Below, piece by piece: positions 1 to 10,109 of a stretch of DNA of 10,484 nucleotides. Where the stretch lies: the NCBI GenBank assembly GCA_903828035.1, contig CAIKKV010000230.1, positions 1 through 10,484 of the forward strand, read 5' to 3'. The notes beneath the pieces are model-generated. The model saw only the letters and a program-made list of their open reading frames with translations, was not told the DNA's origin and did not search any database. How positions within the stretch are numbered: position 1 is the first letter of the stretch; each line of letters starts with the position of its first letter. Source of the stretch: an uncultured bacterium (GTDB taxonomy: Bacteria > Verrucomicrobiota > Kiritimatiellia > CAIKKV01). The position numbers and the translations under genes are program-made.

Positions 1-950
1 AGAACTGCGTGCTGATCACCAATCCCGAGATTTTCAAAATGACGCGCGGGGCGCCCGTCCTGGACCGCCCGCGCCTCCGCCGCCTGGTGAAAATTTTCAC
101 CGCGGCGGGGCTGCCTGATGTCGAGGGTGGCTTTGTGGCCATGCGCAAGGAGTGGACGGCCCCGGTTTTCGTGGAGGTGATGAACCGCGAGCCCGCCACC
201 ACCCCCGCGGGCTACGCCACCGTCGAGGCCCTCTGCCGGCAGCTATACGCGGAGATCGAGCGGAACGGCTGGCGCGATCGCTGGTTCCAGCATGTGGCCG
301 ACGAGCCCATTCCGCCCAGCGCCGCGGACTATCGCATTCTCAGCGGCATCGTCCGCAAGTTCATGCCCGGCATCCCCCTCTTCGATGCCACGCAGGATCC
401 GTCCCTGGTCGGCTCGGTCGATATGTGGTGTCCGCAGGTGCAGGAGTATGAGCGGGATCGCAAGGAATACGAGGTCGCCCGCGACAAGGGCGACAAGGTC
501 TGGTGCTACACCTGCTGCTTCCCCGGCGGCCGCTGGCTCAATCGGCTCCTGGATCAGGAGCTGCTGAGGCCCGCGCTGCTGGGGTGGGGCGTGGCGTTGT
601 ACAAGCTGGACGGCTTCCTGCACTGGGGCTTGAACTGGTGGCAGGATGACTTCCGCCAGGCTACCAGTCCGCCGCGGCCCAAAGGCAAGCCCAACGCCAA
701 CCGGCTTCCGCCCGGCGATACGCACGTGATCTATCCCGGAGCGGAGGGCCCTCGTTCAAGCCTCCGCTTCGAGGCTCAGCGCGAAGGATTTGAGGACCAC
801 GAGCTGCTGCGCCGGCTGCAGGCCCAAAATCCCGCTGCCGCGGCCAAGGTTATCCGCATGGCGATCCGCGGCTTTGGCGACTACACCAAGGATGTCCGCC
901 GCTTCCGCGCCGCGCGCAAGGCCTTGTTGAATAGCCTGGCTGTGGGTTAG
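1..950 (+). CDS. GH123-like / DUF4091 glycosidase, 3' part
   Basis: This is the C-terminal part of a probable glycoside hydrolase of the GH123/DUF4091 type (beta-N-acetylgalactosaminidase-like, retaining, substrate-assisted). The frame is open from base 3 to the TAG at 948-950 with no stop before the GTG at 9. These proteins are usually over 500 residues, so the true start most likely lies upstream. Numbering from the GTG at 9, an acidic pair Asp98-Glu99 in the motif HVADEP fits the Asp/Glu catalytic pair of GH123. Aromatic-rich strands follow (VWCYTCC about 164-170, FLHWGLNWW about 203-211). A DUF4091-like tail has DTHVIYPG about 237-244 and RFEAQREGFEDHELL about 253-267. The helical end is Arg/Ala-rich. 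The gene is convergent with the outer-membrane gene after it and overlaps it by 4 bases. Family membership is fairly secure; substrate is inferred only, and other DUF4091 proteins have no known activity. Confidence 0.75.
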   Translation, partial: NCVLITNPEIFKMTRGAPVLDRPRLRRLVKIFTAAGLPDVEGGFVAMRKEWTAPVFVEVMNREPATTPAGYATVEALCRQLYAEIERNGWRDRWFQHVADEPIPPSAADYRILSGIVRKFMPGIPLFDATQDPSLVGSVDMWCPQVQEYERDRKEYEVARDKGDKVWCYTCCFPGGRWLNRLLDQELLRPALLGWGVALYKLDGFLHWGLNWWQDDFRQATSPPRPKGKPNANRLPPGDTHVIYPGAEGPRSSLRFEAQREGFEDHELLRRLQAQNPAAAAKVIRMAIRGFGDYTKDVRRFRAARKALLNSLAVG

Positions 951-1690
951 AGAACCACGGACAGCGTCAGGCTTCCCCAGAACTGGTCGTCATCCCCGTA
1001 GAGGGCCTTCGCGCCGTCCCGGATATCGGAGTCGGGAAGCCAGGCATACTGGACGCAGGGGGTGAGGGTGACGGTTTCCGACAGGGCGAACGACACCTTG
1101 GCGCACGTGGTTACATCGTTCAGGGCGGCATCGTCGACGCCGAAGTAGAAGGCGTTGTAATCCTCGTCCGCCGCGCCCAGCGAGGCGCTCAGCTCCAAGG
1201 TGGTCTTATCGCAAAGGGTGAACTCCTTTGAAATCGCCACCGAGGCATAGAACCCGTCGGCCTCCTCCACATCGCGGTAGACGGAGAGGGTGGGGACCAC
1301 CACCGAGGCGTCCGGCAGGGACAGGCTTCCGTAGACTTCCCGCGTGCTGGAGGCGTCCGTGTTGGGAAACAGGTATTCGATCACGCCGACGCCATATTCC
1401 ACGGCCCCTAGCTGGCCGCCGTAGGAAGCGGTGAGATCGACCTCCGAGAAGTCGGCTTTGGTCTCTCCGCGGTCGGTGGCGTCGTAGTTCGCCCAGACGT
1501 TCACTCCGAAGCCGCCCTTTTCCACGTTCAAGGCGGGCTGGATGACCGCTTCGTCGTTCAGCACCTGGCCGCGCCACACGTAGGCCGAGAGGACCGGCAG
1601 GTCCACGCCCACATCCGCGCCACGCGCCGCTGTTCCCGCGCCCAGAATTCCAGCCGCCGCCATCAGCATCAGTCCCGTTGCCATCCGCAT
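947..1690 (-). CDS. TorF/Gcw_chp-like outer-membrane beta-barrel protein
   Basis: Probable small outer-membrane beta-barrel protein of 247 residues. I chose the ATG at 1690 over one at 1723 because AGGGAG lies 8 bases upstream of it and because the protein then starts directly with a signal peptide: a short basic start, a hydrophobic Met/Ala/Gly core, and a likely cut near residues 22-25. The mature protein opens with the signature SAYVWRGQVLN (35-45) and then alternating polar/hydrophobic strands with many Gly, Tyr and Phe (for example FGVNVWANYD 61-70). This resembles the TorF/Gcw_chp family, where a YxxRG motif follows the signal peptide. The last residues, SLTLSVVL, form a terminal strand but end in Leu rather than the usual aromatic residue. 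Acidic residues are abundant, as in surface loops. Transport substrate is unknown. It is divergent from rpsB across a 433-base gap and convergent with the glycosidase gene. Confidence 0.75.
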   Translation of the reverse strand: MRMATGLMLMAAAGILGAGTAARGADVGVDLPVLSAYVWRGQVLNDEAVIQPALNVEKGGFGVNVWANYDATDRGETKADFSEVDLTASYGGQLGAVEYGVGVIEYLFPNTDASSTREVYGSLSLPDASVVVPTLSVYRDVEEADGFYASVAISKEFTLCDKTTLELSASLGAADEDYNAFYFGVDDAALNDVTTCAKVSFALSETVTLTPCVQYAWLPDSDIRDGAKALYGDDDQFWGSLTLSVVL

Positions 1691-1726
1691 GTTCGTACTC
1701 CCTGGTTGTGTTTCAGTCGACATATC

Positions 1727-1776
1727 CCTATAGCAAGGGCAATGCCAACTCGGGCCAAAGAGTTGTAAATATCATA
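1727..1776 (-). promoter_or_regulatory. Candidate promoter elements for the outer-membrane gene
   Basis: Two minus-strand -10-like elements precede the gene. One is an extended -10, TGCTATAGG (plus-strand 1727-1735), which would give a leader of about 30 bases. The other is TATGAT (1771-1776), a 5-of-6 match with only a poor -35 at the right distance. Neither has a good -35, so the exact start is uncertain. Confidence 0.3.
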
Positions 1777-1810
1777 CCGGCAATCGGTTGCAAGATAAAA
1801 GGCAAGAATG

Positions 1811-1838
1811 GCGAAATTTCGCAAAACGACAATATTGT
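1811..1838. promoter_or_regulatory. Twin perfect palindromes, possible operator
   Basis: Two exact palindromes lie side by side: GCGAAATTTCGC (12 bases, 1811-1822) and ACAATATTGT (10 bases, 1829-1838). Their centres are 17 bases apart. They sit in the A+T-rich part of the divergent region, upstream of both flanking genes. Dimeric regulators often bind such sites, but no cognate regulator is identifiable here, and short palindromes in A+T-rich DNA can arise by chance. Confidence 0.35.
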
Positions 1839-1904
1839 TGAAGCTGATTCCTGGAGTTACAGGATTGTCTCTCTTGGGAGCGCAAACTCAAAAAGGATAC
1901 GAGT

Positions 1905-1939
1905 CGGTCATCCCGAGCGAGGTCGAGGGATCTCGACCG
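1905..1939. repeat. REP-like intergenic inverted repeat
   Basis: CGGTC+ATCCC (1905-1914) pairs with GGGAT (1927-1931) and GACCG (1935-1939), giving ten pairs with a three-base bulge. A competing seven-pair hairpin, GGTCGAG/CTCGACC, with a GGAT loop occupies 1921-1938. The core TCATCCCGAGCGAGGTCGA resembles a family of dispersed intergenic repeats (TCATTCCGAGCGAAGCGAGG type) that I recall from many environmental bacterial phyla. Only one copy is in this window, so dispersal cannot be shown from it. It lies upstream of the predicted rpsB promoter, so it should not be in the rpsB mRNA. Confidence 0.5.
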
Positions 1940-1959
1940 GCCCGCGACTGATTCCGCGC

Positions 1960-1988
1960 TTGCTTTGCCGCGGTCGGTTCGCTATATT
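1960..1988 (+). promoter_or_regulatory. Candidate sigma70 promoter for rpsB-tsf
   Basis: TTGCTT (1960-1965) and TATATT (1983-1988) are separated by 17 bases. The -10 matches consensus at 5 of 6 positions; the -35 matches only TTG. Transcription would start near 1995, giving an rpsB leader of about 129 bases. This is the best plus-strand pair I can see upstream of rpsB. Confidence 0.5.
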
Positions 1989-1994
1989 CCCCTG

Positions 1995-2123
1995 TCTATT
2001 AAGTCACGGAAAGCCGGATCGTGAGGTCCTGGCCCGATTCCGAGACGGAAGCGAGTGCCTCTTCGCGCCATCGGGGAGGCCAAAGCGGATTGCGGCTCCG
2101 GCCGCCAAAGAAGGAGATGGCAA
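1995..2123 (+). promoter_or_regulatory. rpsB 5' leader with stable hairpins
   Basis: The predicted leader contains a hairpin CGGATCG/CGATTCCG (2015-2021 with 2035-2042, one bulged base). It also contains a compact hairpin GCGGC-TCCG-GCCGC (2092-2105) with a C(UCCG)G loop, a member of the extra-stable cUNCGg class. The second hairpin ends five bases before the AAGGAG at 2111-2116. S2 autoregulates rpsB-tsf in Escherichia coli through the leader, so a regulatory role is plausible, but I do not recognise a specific known leader fold. Confidence 0.35.
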
Positions 2124-3128
<1,005 letters not shown>

Positions 3129-3164
3129 TCAATCCAACGTCCCTGTTTTTGAAGGAGTTTAATC

Positions 3165-4001
3165 ATGGCCGATATTACAGCCAAGATGGTCAGCGAATTG
3201 CGGGAAGCCACCGGCGTCAGCATGATGGAGTGCAAGAAGGCGCTCGTCGAAGCCGGCGGCGATAACGAGAAGGCCGTTCGCCTGCTGCGTGAACGCGGCA
3301 TGGCCAACGCCCAGAAGCGCGCCGGCCGCGCCACCAACCAGGGCATCATCGTCACCGCCGCCTCGGCGGATGGCAAGACCGCCTCCCTGGTCGAAGTCAA
3401 CTGCGAGACCGACTTCGTGGCCCGCAACGACGAGTTCAAGGCGTTCGCCGCCTCGCTCGCCCAGAAGGCGCTGACCACCGATGTCGCCCTGGCCGAGTCC
3501 GAGAAGGACGTCGTCACCTCCCTGATCCAGAAGACGGGCGAGAACATGCAGATCCGTCGCAACCTGCGCTTCCAGGCGCAGGGCGAAGGCCGCCTGGTCG
3601 CCTACATCCACCTCGGCGCCAAGGAAGGCGTTCTCGTGGAGCTCGGATGCGGCAAGCCGGCCACGGCCGCCGCGCCCGCTTTCGTGGAGCTCGGCCGCGA
3701 CATCGCGATGCACGTGTCGGCTGTCTCGCCCCGCTACCTCGAGCGCAGCGAGGTGCCGGCCGAGATCGTCGCCTCCGAGCGCGAGATCTTCGCCAAGCAG
3801 GTCGTCGATAAGCCCGCGAACATCGTGGACAAGATCGTCGACGGCAAGATCAACAAGTTCTACTCCGAGGTCTGCCTGATCGATCAGCCGTTCGTCAAGG
3901 AGCAGAAGATGTCGATCAAGCAGCTGCTCGAAGCCAAGGGCAAGGAATTGGGCGACACGCTGACCCTCCGCCGCTTTGTCCGCTGGATGCTGGGCGAGTA
4001 A
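3165..4001 (+). CDS. tsf: Elongation factor Ts
   Basis: EF-Ts is the cytoplasmic nucleotide exchange factor that releases GDP from EF-Tu. The ATG at 3165 has GAAGGAG ending seven bases upstream. The 278 residues match the family length. An N-terminal UBA-like module (about 1-55) contains ELREATGVSMMECKKAL (11-27). The EF-Tu-contacting motif TDFVARN is intact at 82-88, within VNCETDFVARNDEFKAF. The core repeats continue with AMHVSAVSPRYL (181-192) and the C-terminal signature DGKINKFYSEVCLIDQPFVK (226-245). It follows rpsB by 36 bases, and its TAA at 3999-4001 directly abuts the GTG of the next gene. The pyrH and frr genes that often follow tsf are absent here. Confidence 0.98.
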   Translation: MADITAKMVSELREATGVSMMECKKALVEAGGDNEKAVRLLRERGMANAQKRAGRATNQGIIVTAASADGKTASLVEVNCETDFVARNDEFKAFAASLAQKALTTDVALAESEKDVVTSLIQKTGENMQIRRNLRFQAQGEGRLVAYIHLGAKEGVLVELGCGKPATAAAPAFVELGRDIAMHVSAVSPRYLERSEVPAEIVASEREIFAKQVVDKPANIVDKIVDGKINKFYSEVCLIDQPFVKEQKMSIKQLLEAKGKELGDTLTLRRFVRWMLGE

Positions 4002-4559
4002 GTGTCGCGCCGCGCGGGCCTCTCGCTTTCCGAACTGTGCGCCTCGCTTCACCGCGGGCCGCATTACATCCGGAGTTTACAGCAGGGGCTCGGGCTTCCC
4101 GTCATCGCCAGCCGCGAGGGCTATCCCAAAGAGTACGTCGCCTTTCTTGACCGGGTGCTCTACCTGCGCGTCTTCGCCGTTCCGCTGGACGACATCGCCT
4201 CGCTTTTCGCCATTGAAAAGAAGCTGATGCAGATGCTGAAGGTGGACACCACCGCCTCCTCGCCGCTCTGGTACATGGAGTGGTGCGGGATCGAGGATGC
4301 CTCGCCCAACCGCCTGCTGCTGACCAACTTCGACGCCGGCCCCTGGATCCGCGAGGACGGGACGGTCCAGTTCTCGCTCGACTTCGGCACCCGCAGCCCC
4401 GAGCTCTTCAAGAGCGCCGAGATGGGCGAGGATATCCGCCACGTCTTCTCGCTCTACCGGGAGCAGCTGGCCGCCGTCTCCCGCCGCCTGCGCGACGAGC
4501 GCACCGTGGTGCGCGACGCGCTGGCCTGGGTTTGCACCGACGCTCTCCGGAAAACTTGA
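4002..4559 (+). CDS. Unknown 185-residue protein, possible MerR-like N-terminus
   Basis: I do not recognise this protein firmly. It starts with GTG on the base after the tsf stop, so it is probably translated by re-initiation or coupling; only a weak GGGCGAG-like stretch precedes it. Residues about 7-75 are helical, with a pattern (LSLSELCASL, YIRSLQQGLGLP, then GYPKEYVAFLDRVLYLRVFAVPLDDIA split by short turns) reminiscent of MerR-type winged helices: a helix-turn-helix, a wing and a long helix. The middle (about 80-135) is more beta-like with WYMEWCG and NRLLLTNFDAGPW. The end (about 136-185) is helical and charged. There is no signal peptide or membrane segment, so it is probably cytoplasmic. 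Codon use and composition match the neighbours, and the frame is free of stops, which supports a real gene. It could be a DNA-binding regulator, or a helical translation-linked protein. Function is unknown. Confidence 0.75.
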   Translation: MSRRAGLSLSELCASLHRGPHYIRSLQQGLGLPVIASREGYPKEYVAFLDRVLYLRVFAVPLDDIASLFAIEKKLMQMLKVDTTASSPLWYMEWCGIEDASPNRLLLTNFDAGPWIREDGTVQFSLDFGTRSPELFKSAEMGEDIRHVFSLYREQLAAVSRRLRDERTVVRDALAWVCTDALRKT

Positions 4560-4592: not shown

Positions 4593-5870
4593 ATGAAAAT
4601 ACTGGTCATTGGCGGCGGCGGCCGCGAGCATGCGCTTCTTTGGGCCCTGGCCCGGGATCCCCGGAAACCGGCCCTGTTCTGCGCGCCCGGCAATGCCGGC
4701 ACCCCGGCCCTGGCGGAGACCGTTCCCCTGGCCGCCGAGGACGTCGACGGCCTGCTGGCGTGGGCCGTTGCCCATCGCCCTGATTTCACGGTCGTCGGCC
4801 CCGAGGCGCCCCTGTGCGCCGGCATCGTCGACCGCTTCACCTCCGCCGGCTTCCGCATCTTCGGCCCCTGCCGCGAGGCGGCGCAGCTCGAAGGCAGCAA
4901 GATTTTTTCAAAGGAAGTCATGGCCGCGGCCGGCGTGCCCACCGCGGCCTCCGCGTCGTTCACCGACCCCGCCGCCGCCCTTGCCTATGTGCGCCGGCTG
5001 GGCGGTCCGCTGGTCGTGAAGGCCGACGGGCTCGCCGCGGGCAAGGGCGTGGACGTCTGCGCCACCCCGGCCGAGGCCGAGGCCGCCGTCCGCCGCTCCC
5101 TGGTGGAGCACGCCCACGGCGCCGCCGGAAGCCGGATCCTGATCGAGGAGTTCCTCGAGGGCGAGGAGGTCTCCGTGCTGGCCCTGGTGGACGGGGAGCG
5201 CGTCGTGCTGCTGGACTCCGCGCAGGACCACAAGCGTATTTTCGACCACGACCAGGGGCCCAACACCGGCGGCATGGGCGCCTATTCGCCCGCGCCCGTG
5301 ATGACGGCCGAGTGGAAGCCGGTGATCAAGGAGCAGGTCTTCGATCGCACGCTGGCCGAGCTGAAGCGCCGCGGCATCACCTACAAGGGCGTGCTCTACG
5401 CCGGGATCATGATGACGGCCAGGGGGCCGCGCGTGCTGGAGTTCAACTGCCGGTTCGGCGATCCCGAGACGCAGGCCCTGCTGCCCCGGCTCGCCTCCGA
5501 CCTGCTTCCCGCGCTGGAAGCCTGCGTGGATGGCACGCTGCGGGAGTCGCACGTGGCCTGGAAGCCCGCCGCCTGCGTCTCCGTGGTCGCCGCCGCCGCC
5601 GGCTATCCCGGCGCCTATCCCAAGGGGGGCGTCATCCGCGGCCTTGCCGCGGCCGCCGCCCTGGACGACGTCATCGTCTTTCACGCCGGCACGACGCTGA
5701 AGGACGGCCAGGCCGTCACCTCCGGCGGGCGCGTGCTGGGCATCACGGCGCTTGGCCCCACGATGTCCGCCGCCGTGCGGCAGGTGTACGAGGCCGTGGA
5801 CCGCATCACGTTCGACGGCATGCAGGTCCGGCGCGATATCGCGGCCCGGGCCCTGAAGCGGGGTCTTTAA
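4593..5870 (+). CDS. purD: Phosphoribosylamine-glycine ligase (GAR synthetase)
   Basis: PurD joins glycine to 5-phosphoribosylamine using ATP, making glycinamide ribonucleotide in de novo purine synthesis (cytoplasm, ATP-grasp fold). The 425 residues match the family. The N-domain begins [19 protein letters not shown] (1-19) and has GNAGT (33-37) and [11 protein letters not shown] (67-77). The ATP-grasp region includes [16 protein letters not shown] (138-153), an [12 protein letters not shown] segment (185-196), [17 protein letters not shown] (217-233) and the PurD signature [12 protein letters not shown] (283-294). The C-domain completes at 425. No Shine-Dalgarno site precedes the ATG; a promoter ends nine bases before the start codon, so translation is probably leaderless. 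The gene is first in an operon that also encodes GlyA, which makes its substrate glycine. All hallmark motifs are intact. Confidence 0.98.
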
Positions 5871-6423: not shown

Positions 6424-7376
6424 TGACCCTGCTGCTAGCCGTCCTCTGCCAGGCCGCCCCGCTGGATCCGGCCGCCGATATCTTTGCGGTGCTGAAGGCC
6501 CGCGGCGTGCCGGTGGAGCCCCGGGCCGCCACCCGCGTGGCGACCGAGGCGGTGGTGCGGCTGGCCGATCCGGGCGCCCTGTTTTTCGACGAGGCCGGCG
6601 CGGCCGCGTTCGAGGCGGCCCAGGCGGGCTCCGCCACCAACCCCCCGGCGCTGCAGGACCTGGGCGAGGGGATTGTCCTGCTGAAGGCCGCCGGGATCAA
6701 CGACTCCGTGGCCGCCCTGACCGCCACCGGCCTGGCCCGGGCCGCCTCCCTGGGAGGCGGCTTCATACTCGACTGCCGCGGCGCGGGCGGGACCAACGTG
6801 ACGGCGGTGGATGCCATGGCCGCCCCCTTCGCCGCCCCCGACACCTTTCTGTACGCGGTCCAGGATGCCGCCGGCGAAGACCTGGAGCTGCACGCCGCGC
6901 CTCCGGCCCCCGCCGCCGCTGTCCCCGTATTGATGCTGACCGACTCCCGGACAACCGGCGCGGCCGAGCTGCTGGCCGCCGTGCTGGCCCGCAACCGGGG
7001 CGTCATGCTGGTGGGGGCCGCGACGAAGGGCGATCCCGCCCGGCGCGAGCTCGCCGCCCTGGCCGGCGCCGGGTATGCGTTCATGGCCACGGGCCGCTTT
7101 GTCCGGCCCGACGGCTCCACGTGGGCCGGCACGGGGATCGCCCCGCACGTGCGCGTTCCGGCGGACGCGCCGGCCCGGCCCGAGTTCCGGACCAACCTGA
7201 CCTCCCGCACGGGCAAGCCGCTGGACGCGCTGGCGCGGCGGCATCTCGAATTGTTTTCGCGCGTCCGCTCCGATCCGGGGCTGGCCCGGGCGGTGGACCT
7301 GTTGCTCGGCCTGAAAGCGCTCGCCATCCTTCCGGAGAAAACGCATGCCCCCGTTGCTGCAGCCGATCCCCGTTAA
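6420..7376 (+). CDS. S41-peptidase-like protein, probably inactive
   Basis: This 318-residue protein resembles the core of C-terminal processing (S41/Tsp-type) peptidases, but without a PDZ domain. Residues about 20-65 resemble the N-terminal helical cap. The fold is seen in [12 protein letters not shown] (83-94), the [13 protein letters not shown] segment (112-124), [20 protein letters not shown] (168-187), [12 protein letters not shown] (194-205) and GTWAGTGI-like turns (about 232-240). Aligned without gaps from the Asp of [10 protein letters not shown] to E. coli Tsp DRFSASASE, the catalytic Ser falls on Gly180 and the catalytic Lys on Asp205 (Lys203 is two residues away). It is therefore probably a pseudoprotease. 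The N-terminus is hydrophobic but short (LLLAVLC), so export is uncertain and the lipobox is not canonical. The ATG overlaps the purE TGA by four bases, and the 3' end overlaps the next gene by 32 bases. Role in the operon is unknown. Confidence 0.8.
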
Positions 7377-8430
7377 CCCGCACCGCCCGGATCCCGGCGT
7401 CATCGAGAAAGCGGTTCGCGCGCTGGCAGCGGGCGGCCTGATTCTCGTCCCCACGGAAACGGTTTACGGGCTCGCGGGGGATCCCCGCGTTCCTGGCATT
7501 GAGCGCCGGATTTATGAGTTGAAGGGGCGCGACGAGGGCAAGCCCCTGCCGCTGATGGCGGCGAGCGCCGGCCAGGTGCTGGCTTCCGGCGCCGTGATGG
7601 GCGCGCGGGCGCGCCGGCTGGCGGCCCGGTACTGGCCGGGGCCCCTGACCCTGGTGCTGGAGACGCCCGGCGGCGAGGAGGGCTTCCGCGTGCCCGATCA
7701 TGCCGTCATGCGCGCCATTCTTGAAAAGGCCGGCACCCCGCTGCGCGTGACGAGCGCCAACCGGAGCGGCGAGCCGGCCGCCACGACCGCGGCCGAGGCG
7801 GTCGCGGCGCTGGGGCACGGCGTCGCGCTGGCCCTGGATGCCGGCCCCTGCCGGATTGGAACCGCCTCCAGCGTGGTGCGCCTGGCCGGCGGAGCGTTCC
7901 AGATCCTGCGGGCCGGCGCGATTCCGGAGGGCGACCTGGCCCAGCCGCCCGTGATCCTGTTCGTCTGCACGGGCAACACCTGCCGCAGCATGATGGCGGA
8001 GTACAGCTTCCGGGAGCGGCTGCGCCAGTCGGGAATCGGGTGGCGGACCGCCTCGGCCGGAACCGAGGCGGTGGACGGCTTTCCGGCCTCATCGCTGGCG
8101 ATCCGCCTGCTGGCCAGGCGAGGAATCGACGGCGCCGCGCACCTGAGCTCGAGGCTGACTCGGGAACTGGTTGACGAAGCCGGACTGATTGTGGTAATGA
8201 CGCAATTTCACCGGATGACCGTCCTGAGGCGCTTTCCGGACGCCGCGCCCAAGGTGCGACTGCTCAAGGAGTTTGACAGTCGGTCCGGAGGCGGGGATGT
8301 GGAAGACCCGTTTGGCGAGTCTTCCGGGGAATACGTGCGGATTCTGGAAGAGATCGAAGCGGCATTCCCGGAACTGGTTTTAGCCGTGCATGAGCTCGAG
8401 CGATCGGATCGGTCGGGCGGAAAGGGATAG
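7345..8430 (+). CDS. tsaC-ywlE: Fusion: TsaC threonylcarbamoyl-AMP synthase + YwlE-like phosphatase
   Basis: Two enzymes lie in one 361-residue frame. Residues about 15-195 are a Sua5/YrdC/TsaC domain, which makes threonylcarbamoyl-AMP for the t6A modification of tRNA. Motifs are [17 protein letters not shown] (30-46), [11 protein letters not shown] (60-70), [10 protein letters not shown] (96-105) and TSANRSGEP (136-144). Residues about 203-350 are a low-molecular-weight phosphatase domain with P-loop CTGNTCRS (208-215; nucleophile Cys208, Arg214) and a DPFG acid motif at Asp321. Thr212 aligns with Thr11 of Bacillus YwlE, the residue linked to phospho-arginine rather than phospho-tyrosine specificity, so a protein-arginine phosphatase is likely by homology. 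The usual Pro after CRS is Met. GGAG (7334-7337) lies seven bases before the ATG at 7345, which overlaps the preceding gene by 32 bases. The fused rpiB-glyA gene begins two bases later. In Bacillus these are separate genes of one neighbourhood. Confidence 0.93.
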
Positions 8431-8432
8431 CC

Positions 8433-10109
8433 ATGAAATGGGCAATAGGCGCCGACCACGGCGGCTTTGAGCTGAAAGAGCACCTGAAGGGGATGCTCCG
8501 GGCGCGCGGGATCGAAGTCGAGGACTTCGGCTGCTCGGATACCGCCTCGTGCGATTATACCGACTTCGCCAACAAGGTGGCCGCCGCGGTGACCACGGGC
8601 CTCGCCGGCCAGGGCCTGCTGGTCTGCACGACCGGCCAGGGCATGATCATGGCGGCCAACAAGTATCCGCACGTGCGGGCGGCGCTGTGCATGACGGCCG
8701 AGATGGCGGCCATGACCCGCTCCCACAACGACGCCAACGTCCTCGTCCTGGCGCAGAAGTACACCCCCCAGGAGCAGGCGGACGCCATTTTGGACGCCTG
8801 GCTGAAAGCCAAGCCCGATATGGCCGAGCGGCATCACCGCCGGCTTGTTAAAATGGGCGGCTCGGGCGTGACGGATCCGCTGGAGATCGCGAGCGTCGAT
8901 CCCGACTTGTACGTCCTGATGGATGCCGAGCGGACCCGCCAGGCGGAGACGATCGACCTGATCGCCTCGGAGAACTACAGCAGCCGGGCCGTGCGCGAGG
9001 CGCAGGGCTCCCTGCTGACGAACAAATATGCCGAGGGCTATCCGGGCAAGCGCTGGTACAACGGCTGCCGCTGGGTGGACGAAGTCGAGAAGCTGGCGAT
9101 CGAGCGGGCCAAGGCTCTCTTCGGCGCCGAGCATGCCAACGTCCAGCCGCACAGCGGCAGCGGCGCGAACATGGCGGTCTATTTCGCCCTGCTCCAGCCG
9201 GGCGATGCCATCCTGGCCATGCGCCTGGACCAGGGCGGCCATCTGACGCACGGCAGCGCCGTCAATTTTTCAGGCCGCCTGTTCCGGGTGAGCCACTACG
9301 GCGTTAGACCGAAGACCGAGCTGATCGACTATGACGAGGTCGAGAAGCTGGCGAAGGAAAAGAAGCCGAAGCTGCTCGTGGCGGGCGCCAGCGCCTATCC
9401 GCGCGTGCTTGATTTCCCCCGCCTGCGCGCCATTGCCGATTCGGTTGGCGCCCTGCTGATGGTCGATATGGCGCATATCGCCGGGCTGGTGGCCGGCGGC
9501 GCCCATCCCAACCCCATGCCGTACTGCGATATCGTGACCAGCACCACGCATAAGACGCTCCGGGGGCCCCGCAGCGGACTGATTCTCTGCCGGGAGAAGT
9601 ATGCGGCCGACATCGACAAGCAGGTGTTTCCGGGCATCCAGGGCGGCCCCCTGATGCATGCGGTGGCGGCCAAGGCCGTTTGCTTCCACGAGGCGGCCCA
9701 GCCGGCGTTCAAGGCCTATATTGCGCAGGTCCTGGCCAATACCCGGGTGATGGCGGAGCGTCTGGCCGCGGCCGGGCTCCGGATCGTCTCGGGCGGCACG
9801 GACAATCACCTGCTGCTGGTGGATTTGAACAGCCTGGGGATTTCCGGCAAGGATGCGGCCAATGCCCTCGAAAAGGGCGGCGTGACGTGCAACAAGAACG
9901 CCATTCCCTTCGACACCCGGAGCCCCTTCCAGACATCCGGCATCCGCCTCGGCGCGGCCGCGGTCACGACGCGCGGCATGAAGGAAGCCGAGATGGAGGG
10001 CATTGCCCATCTGATTGTGGAAGGCCTGCGCCATGCGCAGGACGATCAGGCCCTGGCCGCCCTGCGGCTCGAGGCCCTGGCGTTGACGGCCCGTTTTCCG
10101 ATTGATTAA
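8433..10109 (+). CDS. rpiB-glyA: Fusion: ribose-5-phosphate isomerase B + serine hydroxymethyltransferase
   Basis: One uninterrupted 558-residue frame carries two complete enzymes. Residues 1-140 are RpiB (ribose-5-P/ribulose-5-P isomerase): DHGG (8-11), DYTDFA (41-46), [14 protein letters not shown] (64-77; Cys65 and Thr67 at the catalytic positions) and SHNDANVL (97-104; His98). Thr66 replaces the usual Gly of CGTG, and Thr replaces Pro in DYPDFA. After a linker of about ten residues (141-150), residues about 155-558 are GlyA (SHMT; serine + THF to glycine + methylene-THF, PLP-dependent): LIASENY (176-182), [11 protein letters not shown] (201-211), [13 protein letters not shown] (238-250), DMAHIAGL (345-352), [10 protein letters not shown] (371-380; PLP Lys374), [11 protein letters not shown] (399-409) and TSGIRLG (501-507). 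Trp208 replaces the first of the usual paired Tyr. AAAGGG precedes the ATG at 8433. The GlyA part resembles the Bacillus enzyme closely. Confidence 0.97.

What the first reader, a model, noticed from the sequence alone, without database searches (positions are those of the whole stretch)
8433..10109. RpiB and GlyA fused into one bifunctional enzyme
Both domains are complete and joined by a linker of only about ten residues. RpiB supplies ribose-5-P (hence PRPP) and GlyA supplies glycine and one-carbon units, which are the inputs of the purine pathway whose genes purD and purE lie in the same operon. The frame contains no stop, and no second Shine-Dalgarno site precedes the possible internal ATG at 8853. 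This is a gene-neighbour pair (as in Bacillus) turned into a single polypeptide, and a bifunctional enzyme that I do not recall being characterised.
Basis: partly seen in the sequence, partly recalled or inferred. Interest (0 to 1): 0.7.

Follow-up and report, generated by a model that had tools for sequence, protein, structure and literature searches.

The report
Two fused enzymes, common in Verrucomicrobiota
One gene makes a single protein that joins a sugar-phosphate enzyme (RpiB) to a glycine-making enzyme (GlyA); the join is real and widespread in one bacterial phylum, and it is of interest because in some lineages the sugar enzyme half has lost its working parts yet stays attached.

Summary
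Confirmed: window 8433-10109 is one open frame (558 aa) with full RpiB (4-140) and SHMT (153-528) domains. Close relatives keep the length; 219 of 288 genomes drawn from the phylum have one uninterrupted match through both domains, against 0 of 97 Omnitrophota and 0 of 99 Acidobacteriota. Both active sites are intact in the window. In 29 genomes with the fusion it is the only full SHMT (29 of 29), RpiA is absent (0 of 29) and it is the only RpiB in 23, so both halves should work. No re-initiation signal marks the join. The fusion is not new to print: a 2008 paper describes an LMW-phosphatase/RpiB/SHMT protein in Methylacidiphilum infernorum; I found no biochemistry. New here: where a standalone Glu-type RpiB exists, fused RpiB can lose Cys65 and His98 (7 of 22 loci against 0 of 46), seems to be cut out in other lineages, or, in 99 database proteins, carries fixed new pocket residues. 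The M. infernorum protein itself lacks isomerase residues. The window's protein is best read as genuinely bifunctional.

The parts
8433..10109 (+). RpiB-GlyA fusion gene, 558 aa, ATG start, stop at 10107-10109
   Evidence: Pfam; NCBIfam; homologues of the same length
8433..8858 (+). RpiB (LacAB_rpiB) domain, residues 1-142; catalytic Cys65 codon at 8625-8627
   Evidence: Pfam 161.2 bits; PRK05571 149.3 bits over cut-off 135; Asp8, Cys65, His98, Asn99, Arg133, His134, Arg137 invariant in a 48-protein alignment
8859..8888 (+). linker, residues 143-152; 143-147 have pLDDT under 50
   Evidence: linker 0-18 residues in 50 fused loci, 8-10 in 34 of them
   Evidence: no SD-like word upstream; 13 of 50 fused loci have no ATG, GTG or TTG at all at the join
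8889..10106 (+). GlyA (SHMT) domain, residues 153-558; PLP-binding Lys374 codon at 9552-9554
   Evidence: Pfam 531.6 bits; PRK00011 618.3 bits over cut-off 335; alignment to 1kkj; conservation
7345..8430 (+). Sua5/YrdC + LMW phosphatase fusion, 361 aa, the next two members of the same conserved gene string; ends 2 nt before the RpiB-GlyA start
   Evidence: Pfam Sua5 26-191 and LMWPc 204-344
4593..5870 (+). purD
   Evidence: TIGR00877 516.9 bits
5896..6423 (+). purE
   Evidence: TIGR01162 191.6 bits
6420..7376 (+). S41-peptidase-like protein between purE and sua5
   Evidence: Pfam Peptidase_S41 50.6 bits; a relative lies beside the fusion in some related loci

Best explanation
The gene encodes a true bifunctional enzyme. 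The N-terminal domain is a Cys-type ribose-5-phosphate isomerase B (ribulose-5-P to and from ribose-5-P), the C-terminal domain a PLP-dependent serine hydroxymethyltransferase (serine + THF to and from glycine + methylene-THF), joined by a short flexible linker and translated as one chain. It arose once, or nearly once, at or near the base of the phylum Verrucomicrobiota (wide sense: Kiritimatiellota, Lentisphaerota, Verrucomicrobiota) from a gene string sua5 - ptp (LMW phosphatase) - rpiB - glyA, in which neighbours have been joined in several ways. No intermediate is shared by the two reactions, so substrate channelling is not expected; the likely benefit is fixed 1:1 supply of ribose-5-P (PRPP) and of glycine plus one-carbon units, which meet in purine synthesis (PurD joins the PRPP-derived amine to glycine). 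Shown: single frame, spread, intact active sites, lack of backup genes in most genomes tested, absence of a start signal at the join. Inferred: both activities, quaternary structure, the purine rationale, time of origin.
For: One uninterrupted match through both domains in 219 of 288 phylum genomes (150, 30, 39; tally; seven of them have a dead RpiB). Of 29 genomes holding the fusion (29 of the 43 behind the fused loci): full SHMT exactly one in 29, RpiA 0 of 29 (the same search rings in 8 of 14 control genomes), other LacAB_rpiB copies in 6. RpiB catalytic residues kept. Of 17 SHMT positions checked in 51 rows, 12 are invariant, four have one gap, one (182) varies. SD-like in-frame start at the join: 2 of 51 fused genes, 9.3% of control stretches of the same genes, against 26 of 43 GlyA ORFs without RpiB, where the stretch scanned was often longer. 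Natural experiment: with no Glu-type RpiB elsewhere 0 of 46 fused RpiBs lost Cys65 or His98 and 43 of 46 keep all 13 residues checked; with one, 7 of 22 lost both. rpiB and glyA are separate genes in the same order in the loci of other phyla that hold both; in 6 of 13 such genomes they share a frame with one stop between.
Against: No activity was measured. The RpiB half scores 132.9 bits against the equivalog model TIGR01120 (cut-off 138.65), just short. The residue after Cys65 is not Gly in at least 49 of 50 fused loci, but Gly in 26 of 35 unfused RpiBs; the window also has Gln69, seen in 6 of 212 fused database proteins. Six of 29 genomes carry another RpiB-family gene. No whole genome is held for the window, so a second RpiB or SHMT there cannot be excluded. 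purD linkage is patchy.
Confidence: 0.85

Rival explanations
1. The RpiB half isomerises another sugar phosphate (an allose-, erythrulose- or galactose-phosphate-like substrate) rather than ribose-5-P, so the protein is bifunctional but not an R5P supplier.
For: Lineage-specific change beside the catalytic Cys (Cys-Thr-Thr-Gly-Gln-Gly in the window); score just under the rpiB equivalog cut-off.
Against: No RpiA in 29 of 29 and no other RpiB in 23 of 29 such genomes, which would leave them without an R5P isomerase of either known family; PRK05571 (RpiB) cut-off met, while LacA, LacB and erythrulose-P models stay far below theirs; the catalytic residues are lost only where a Glu-type RpiB exists.
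Confidence: 0.1
2. Two proteins are made: RpiB from the first start and GlyA from an internal start at the join.
For: An in-frame ATG (8853) and GTG lie at the join in the window. SD-like words are no perfect guide here: by the same rule only 16 of 33 RpiB-GlyA genes have one before the RpiB start.
Against: No stop between the domains; SD-like starts at the join are rarer than in control stretches (2 of 51 against 9.3%) and far rarer than at GlyA ORFs without RpiB (26 of 43); 13 of 50 fused loci have no start codon there.
Confidence: 0.04
3. The RpiB half is a passenger or assembly domain, as in the Methylacidiphilum relatives, and only GlyA works.
For: Such proteins exist: 7 of 22 fused RpiBs with a Glu-type backup gene have lost 5-11 of 13 residues, and 113 of the 120 listed hits of one of them are degenerate.
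Against: The window keeps every one of these residues. The nearest held genome, G138 (GlyA 75% identical), shows no second RpiB-like match, and G001 and G002 have one LacAB_rpiB each.
Confidence: 0.05
4. The fusion is selectively neutral: neighbouring genes lost a stop codon and the join persists without any functional link.
For: In 6 of 13 genomes of other phyla the pair lies in one frame with a single stop between; the neighbouring LMW phosphatase joins and parts repeatedly (8 changes for the three-domain label); LMWP-GlyA genes show that GlyA can do without RpiB.
Against: RpiB-GlyA is present in 219 of 288 genomes with few changes on the GlyA tree (4), and 42 of the 69 genomes without an intact fusion have a Glu-type RpiB. 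This rival concerns the reason for the fusion, not the two activities, so its odds overlap with the best explanation.
Confidence: 0.35

Closest known systems
Methylacidiphilum infernorum Minf_1669 kind: LMW phosphatase + RpiB + SHMT in one chain (Biol Direct 2008, PMC2474590)
   Same: RpiB and SHMT in one chain (passages read); the only such fusion I found described in print.
   Different: It carries an LMW phosphatase in the same chain, which the window has in the upstream ORF. The M. infernorum protein in the database (P0215, 736 aa, longest contig 2,287,145 bp) deviates at 10 of 13 RpiB residues checked, Cys65 and His98 among them, so it should not be an isomerase; the window's should be.
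Standalone RpiB (solved: 3he8, 1o1x, 2vvr and others)
   Same: Aligned over the whole domain with the Cys, Thr, His and Arg positions in register.
   Different: C-terminally joined to SHMT; Gly66 replaced.
Standalone bacterial SHMT, GlyA (solved: 1kkj, 1dfo and others)
   Same: 60% identical to B. stearothermophilus SHMT 1kkj in the structural alignment with the active-site stretches in register.
   Different: N-terminal RpiB; of 107 matching PDB sequences the 60 listed are SHMTs of at most 507 aa, so no solved fusion is seen there.
Gene string sua5 - ptp - rpiB - glyA (as around ywlC-ywlE-ywlF-glyA of Bacillus; Bacillus names recalled)
   Same: Same order in Bacillota loci L051 and L068 (in L068 about 750 nt lie between rpiB and glyA) and Omnitrophota locus L101.
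   Different: Fused in Verrucomicrobiota in several combinations: 2+2 (window), LMWP-RpiB-GlyA, all four (L009), LMWP-GlyA.

Membership tests
RpiB (ribose-5-phosphate isomerase B) | LacAB_rpiB domain over its full length | tested here: met
   Pfam 161.2 bits, profile 2-137 of 138; PRK05571 149.3 over cut-off 135
RpiB (ribose-5-phosphate isomerase B) | Catalytic Cys, Thr/Ser of the anion hole, ring-opening His, phosphate-site His and Arg residues (roles recalled from E. coli RpiB literature) | tested here: met
   Cys65, Thr67, His98, His9, Arg133, Arg137 present; Cys65, His98, Arg133, Arg137 invariant and His9, Thr67 nearly invariant in 48 proteins
RpiB (ribose-5-phosphate isomerase B) | Equivalog score TIGR01120 over cut-off | tested here: not met
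   132.9 bits against 138.65; membership of the wider subfamily is met, so the claim 'works like RpiB' is unaffected but the equivalog label is not earned
RpiB (ribose-5-phosphate isomerase B) | R5P isomerase activity | not testable with these tools
   indirect: no RpiA in 29 of 29, no other RpiB in 23 of 29 fused genomes
Serine hydroxymethyltransferase (GlyA) | Full SHMT domain, subfamily model PRK00011 over cut-off | tested here: met
   618.3 bits against 335
Serine hydroxymethyltransferase (GlyA) | PLP lysine in TTHKT, catalytic Glu, Tyr, His and Asp residues (roles recalled) | tested here: met
   Lys374, Glu180, Tyr203, His270, Asp345, His348, Arg505; alignment to 1kkj
Serine hydroxymethyltransferase (GlyA) | Serine/glycine interconversion with THF | not testable with these tools
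   indirect: sole full SHMT in 29 of 29 genomes with the fusion
LMW phosphatase-RpiB-SHMT protein (Minf_1669 kind) | LMW phosphatase in the same chain | tested here: not met
   LMWPc lies in the upstream ORF 7345-8430, fused to Sua5
LMW phosphatase-RpiB-SHMT protein (Minf_1669 kind) | RpiB N-terminal to SHMT in one frame | tested here: met
   window; order in the M. infernorum relatives from L143 and P0215

The most novel reading that the evidence does not exclude
The RpiB module on SHMT has a second, non-isomerase role. Where a standalone Glu-type RpiB took over, lineages more than once lost the isomerase residues but kept the domain; in one group (99 proteins, LMWP-RpiB-GlyA, picked by Asp at position 65) the pocket looks rebuilt with fixed new residues (Glu44 in 99 of 99, Ser95 99, His99 98) while the phosphate-site residues drift, and the domain has diverged no faster than live ones. 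There it may sense a ligand or set the assembly of SHMT.
Probability: 0.3. Interest if true: 0.7.

Novelty: new variant of a known kind. Interest (0 to 1): 0.5.

Why it matters
It bears on annotation: where a source gives a name, these proteins are called only SHMT or only RpiB (listings), so one activity can be missed in metabolic maps of a phylum. It questions a printed inference: the 2008 paper took the domain mix of the M. infernorum protein to link the serine and pentose phosphate pathways, but its RpiB half lacks the isomerase residues. And it offers a natural series (separate genes, live fusion, dead domain kept, domain absent) for asking why enzymes of different pathways stay fused and what a dead enzyme domain does for its partner.

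Tried and rejected
Sequencing artefact or chance frame: rejected (relatives of the same length; 219 of 288 genomes). Internal start: made unlikely by the start-signal test and by the 13 of 50 loci without any start codon at the join. Fusion in two other phyla: no uninterrupted match through both domains in 97 Omnitrophota and 99 Acidobacteriota. A fusion with a long linker could show as two matches, so 16 rows whose 'open_frame_aa' suggested a joint frame were fetched; none has RpiB and GlyA in one ORF, that column runs through stop codons. The first 80 loci are the best 80 of 497, so they are biased to close relatives; other phyla were seen only through those. A structure search of the AlphaFold2 model (pLDDT 87.3, pTM 0.79) lists only SHMT chains in its 50 rows and adds nothing on the RpiB half or on quaternary structure; no dimer model was made. 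The four-domain ORF L009 (927 aa) is equivocal: an ATG with an AGGAG 12 nt upstream remains at its LMWP/RpiB join (sequence printed), and in the 120 listed hits only P0121 (892 aa, 100% identical over 96%) also has all four domains. The Asp65 group had no close full-length match in 387 phylum genomes (best 65% to its member P0254), so whether its hosts hold a backup RpiB could not be tested. The decay test (7 of 22 against 0 of 46, Fisher p 1.8e-4) ignores kinship: six of the seven dead rows form one clade with the broken remnant L117 and L147 lies apart; in the fuller tree, L144 parts from the others with live rows between. Some of the 46 have other RpiB-family genes that are not Glu-type (G003, G013, G028, G029; G188, G291). 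The Glu-type label of the 62 genomes rests on a score gap (147 against 131 bits); the motif itself was read in 15 standalone sequences. Trees are 'quick' builds with many weak forks, and the RpiB tree has only 141 columns.

Full report
WHAT IS THERE. The window's ORF 8433-10109 (558 aa) reads without a stop through a complete RpiB domain and a complete SHMT domain. Its start lies 2 nt after the stop of ORF 7345-8430, which Pfam reads as Sua5 (26-191) plus LMW phosphatase (204-344), another fusion. Further upstream on the same strand are an S41-peptidase-like ORF, purE, purD, a 185-aa ORF without Pfam or NCBIfam match, and ORFs for EF-Ts and ribosomal protein S2.

HOW COMMON. A protein search scored 8000 relatives, of which the best 120 (the window's own protein among them) are listed; 119 of these 120 carry both the SHMT and the RpiB Pfam domain (P0014 lacks the RpiB call) and many also an LMW phosphatase. 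Of 80 loci from species genomes (best 80 of 497), RpiB and GlyA share an ORF in 43, titled as Verrucomicrobia, Lentisphaerae, Kiritimatiellota or PVC group, or as unnamed bacteria that group with these in the tree; in the loci of other phyla that hold both genes they are separate and in the same order. In 288 genomes drawn from the phylum of G006 (a Kiritimatiellae MAG; Lentisphaerota loci such as L029 and L045 lie in the drawn genomes too), 219 have one uninterrupted match through both domains (150 listed, 30, 39; tally). Of the other 69, at least five look fused but cut by contig ends (G206, G257, G269, G290 by their coordinates; G296 by reading L119), one lost the frame at the join (G217 = L118), six had no match, three only weak or RpiB-only matches (G114, G133, G159), and the remaining 54 have GlyA matches that do not run through RpiB. 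In 97 Omnitrophota and 99 Acidobacteriota genomes none has an uninterrupted match through both. In 6 of 13 genomes of other phyla the pair lies in one frame with just one stop between.

ONE CHAIN. At the RpiB/GlyA join 2 of 51 fused genes (50 loci and the window) have an in-frame start preceded by an SD-like word, against 9.3% of control stretches in the same genes and 26 of 43 GlyA ORFs without RpiB; for the last the stretch scanned was often longer. By the same rule 16 of 33 RpiB-GlyA genes have such a word before the RpiB start. 13 of 50 have no ATG, GTG or TTG at the join. Linkers run from 0 to 18 residues, 8-10 in 34 of 50. AlphaFold2 gives two mostly confident domains with residues 143-147 under pLDDT 50.

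BOTH HALVES SHOULD WORK. In the window the RpiB residues aligned with solved RpiBs are in place, and Cys65, His98, Arg133 and Arg137 are invariant in 48 fused proteins. Of 17 SHMT positions checked in 51 rows, 12 are invariant, four (the PLP-lysine block) have one gap, and one (182) varies. In 29 genomes with the fusion (29 of the 43 behind the fused loci were given), it is the only full SHMT in 29 (one further hit in G012 is under the cut-off); RpiA is found in 0 of 29 while the same search rings in 8 of 14 control genomes; other RpiB-family genes exist in 6 of 29. The roles given to single residues, and the reaction of each enzyme, are from general knowledge.

WHERE IT CAME FROM. On a GlyA tree of 101 rows the fused/unfused label needs 4 changes, compatible with one early fusion and a few losses; support at the base is weak. 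The LMW phosphatase joins more freely: the three-domain label needs 8 changes, and near-identical GlyAs differ in it (L034 against L028, L029). Among 100 loci the ORF holding GlyA was GlyA alone 43, RpiB-GlyA 33, LMWP-RpiB-GlyA 16, LMWP-GlyA 7, all four 1; this count depends on BLAST, and L090 and L093 have long N-terminal stretches in which Pfam finds no LMWP either. purD lies on the stretch in 15 and purE in 8 of 50 fused loci; stretches differ in length, so these are lower bounds.

LOSS AND REPLACEMENT. Seven loci have LMWP joined directly to GlyA (L081-L084, L086-L088, L081 and L087 confirmed by Pfam). Twenty standalone RpiB genes of the phylum were fetched; 15 form their own clade (97, starred) with the motif GGSGNGE in place of the Cys motif. 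This is the type of M. tuberculosis RpiB, which uses Glu as base (recalled); of four tested, L121 passes the RPI_actino cut-off, L127, L128 and L135 do not. By a score gap, 62 of 288 genomes have this type: 20 of 219 with the intact fusion against 42 of 69 without (Fisher p 1.6e-17, kinship ignored). In fused genes without such a backup (46 loci; absence checked, though some have other RpiB-family genes) 43 have all 13 RpiB residues checked, 3 miss one, none misses Cys65 or His98. In fused genes with it (22 loci) 15 keep all 13 and 7 have lost 5-11 of 13, Cys65 and His98 among them, while the frame stays open. In one search six of the seven form one clade with L117, where the RpiB part has decayed and a stop follows, and L147 lies elsewhere; a fuller tree splits L144 off. 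So the RpiB half is kept intact where no Glu-type copy exists, which is the best indirect evidence for the window.

DEAD DOMAINS THAT STAY. A search with one dead-domain protein (L143) returned named hits: Methylacidiphilum caldifontis (the query itself), M. infernorum, M. kamchatkense and Methylacidimicrobium. Of the 120 listed hits 113 have lost Cys65 or His98 or at least three of 13 residues. Over the 333 proteins held plus the window's row, classes are live 220, Cys65-to-Asp 99, other 15; the Asp class is defined by that residue. It keeps Gly68, Asn76, Arg82, Arg96, Asn102 and Trp123 in 99 of 99 and has its own near-fixed residues (Glu44, Leu71, Ser95 99 of 99, His99 98), while His9, Arg133, His134 and Arg137 drift; its RpiB-domain identity at a given GlyA identity is not lower than in live pairs (0.752 against 0.688 at GlyA 85-90%; 60 Asp-class proteins used). 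On a tree the dead rows fall in three starred groups and one single row, with live rows between at supports of 85-94. None of the 387 phylum genomes searched with a member gave a close full-length match, so its hosts and backup genes are unknown.

WHAT IS IN PRINT. The 2008 genome paper of M. infernorum calls Minf_1669 an unusual protein with SHMT, LMW phosphatase and RpiB domains and infers a tight link of serine and pentose phosphate pathways (PMC2474590; passages only). The M. infernorum protein P0215 deviates at 10 of 13 RpiB residues; that P0215 is Minf_1669 is inferred from species and domains. Ten paper searches listed no other paper that I could recognise from its listing as describing the fusion; apart from PMC2474590 I saw only search listings. 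The library holds open-licence papers only.

VERDICT. Real, widespread, very likely bifunctional in the window's lineage, already glimpsed in print in another form. The surprising part lies in its relatives: the same fusion with the isomerase residues lost more than once, and in one group apparently refitted.

Noticed in passing
window 7345-8430: Sua5/YrdC and LMW phosphatase in one ORF; the phosphatase motif reads CTGNTCRS, with Thr where many tyrosine phosphatases have Ile, as in arginine phosphatase YwlE (recalled).
   Followed up: partly
L009 4882-7665: A 927-aa ORF with Sua5, LMWP, RpiB and GlyA in one frame; its sister L010 has a stop/start overlap at the LMWP/RpiB join. An SD-like word and ATG remain at that join in L009, so separate translation is possible.
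   Followed up: partly
L081-L084, L086-L088: LMW phosphatase fused directly to GlyA with no RpiB between; for six of the seven host genomes (not G281) a Glu-type RpiB is found elsewhere.
   Followed up: yes
L117 (G179) 1096-3308 minus strand: Decayed RpiB between LMWP and GlyA, interrupted by a stop, with a standalone Glu-type RpiB elsewhere in the genome (L127).
   Followed up: yes
99 of the proteins P0224-P0333, such as P0254: LMWP-RpiB-GlyA proteins whose RpiB has Asp for the catalytic Cys and other near-fixed new residues; hosts unnamed.
   Followed up: partly
fused RpiB domains, window residue 66: The residue after the catalytic Cys is Thr 27, Arg 13, Lys 7, Asn 1, Met 1 in 50 fused loci (one more not shown) but Gly in 26 of 35 unfused RpiBs.
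   Followed up: no
window 4002-4559: 185-aa ORF between the EF-Ts ORF and purD with no Pfam or NCBIfam match.
   Followed up: no
window 3-950 and 947-1723 (minus): Partial GH123 catalytic-domain ORF running off the window, and a TorF-porin-like ORF on the other strand (38.7 bits, under cut-off).
   Followed up: no
genomes G219, G236, G242, G248, G259: SHMT-like matches in two pieces (main piece 47-52% identical), perhaps the longer PRK13580-like SHMT; in G242 beside an intact fusion.
   Followed up: no
one of 51 GlyA rows, probably L027 (534 aa): The stretch that holds the PLP lysine is a gap in that row; assembly error or loss not told apart.
   Followed up: no
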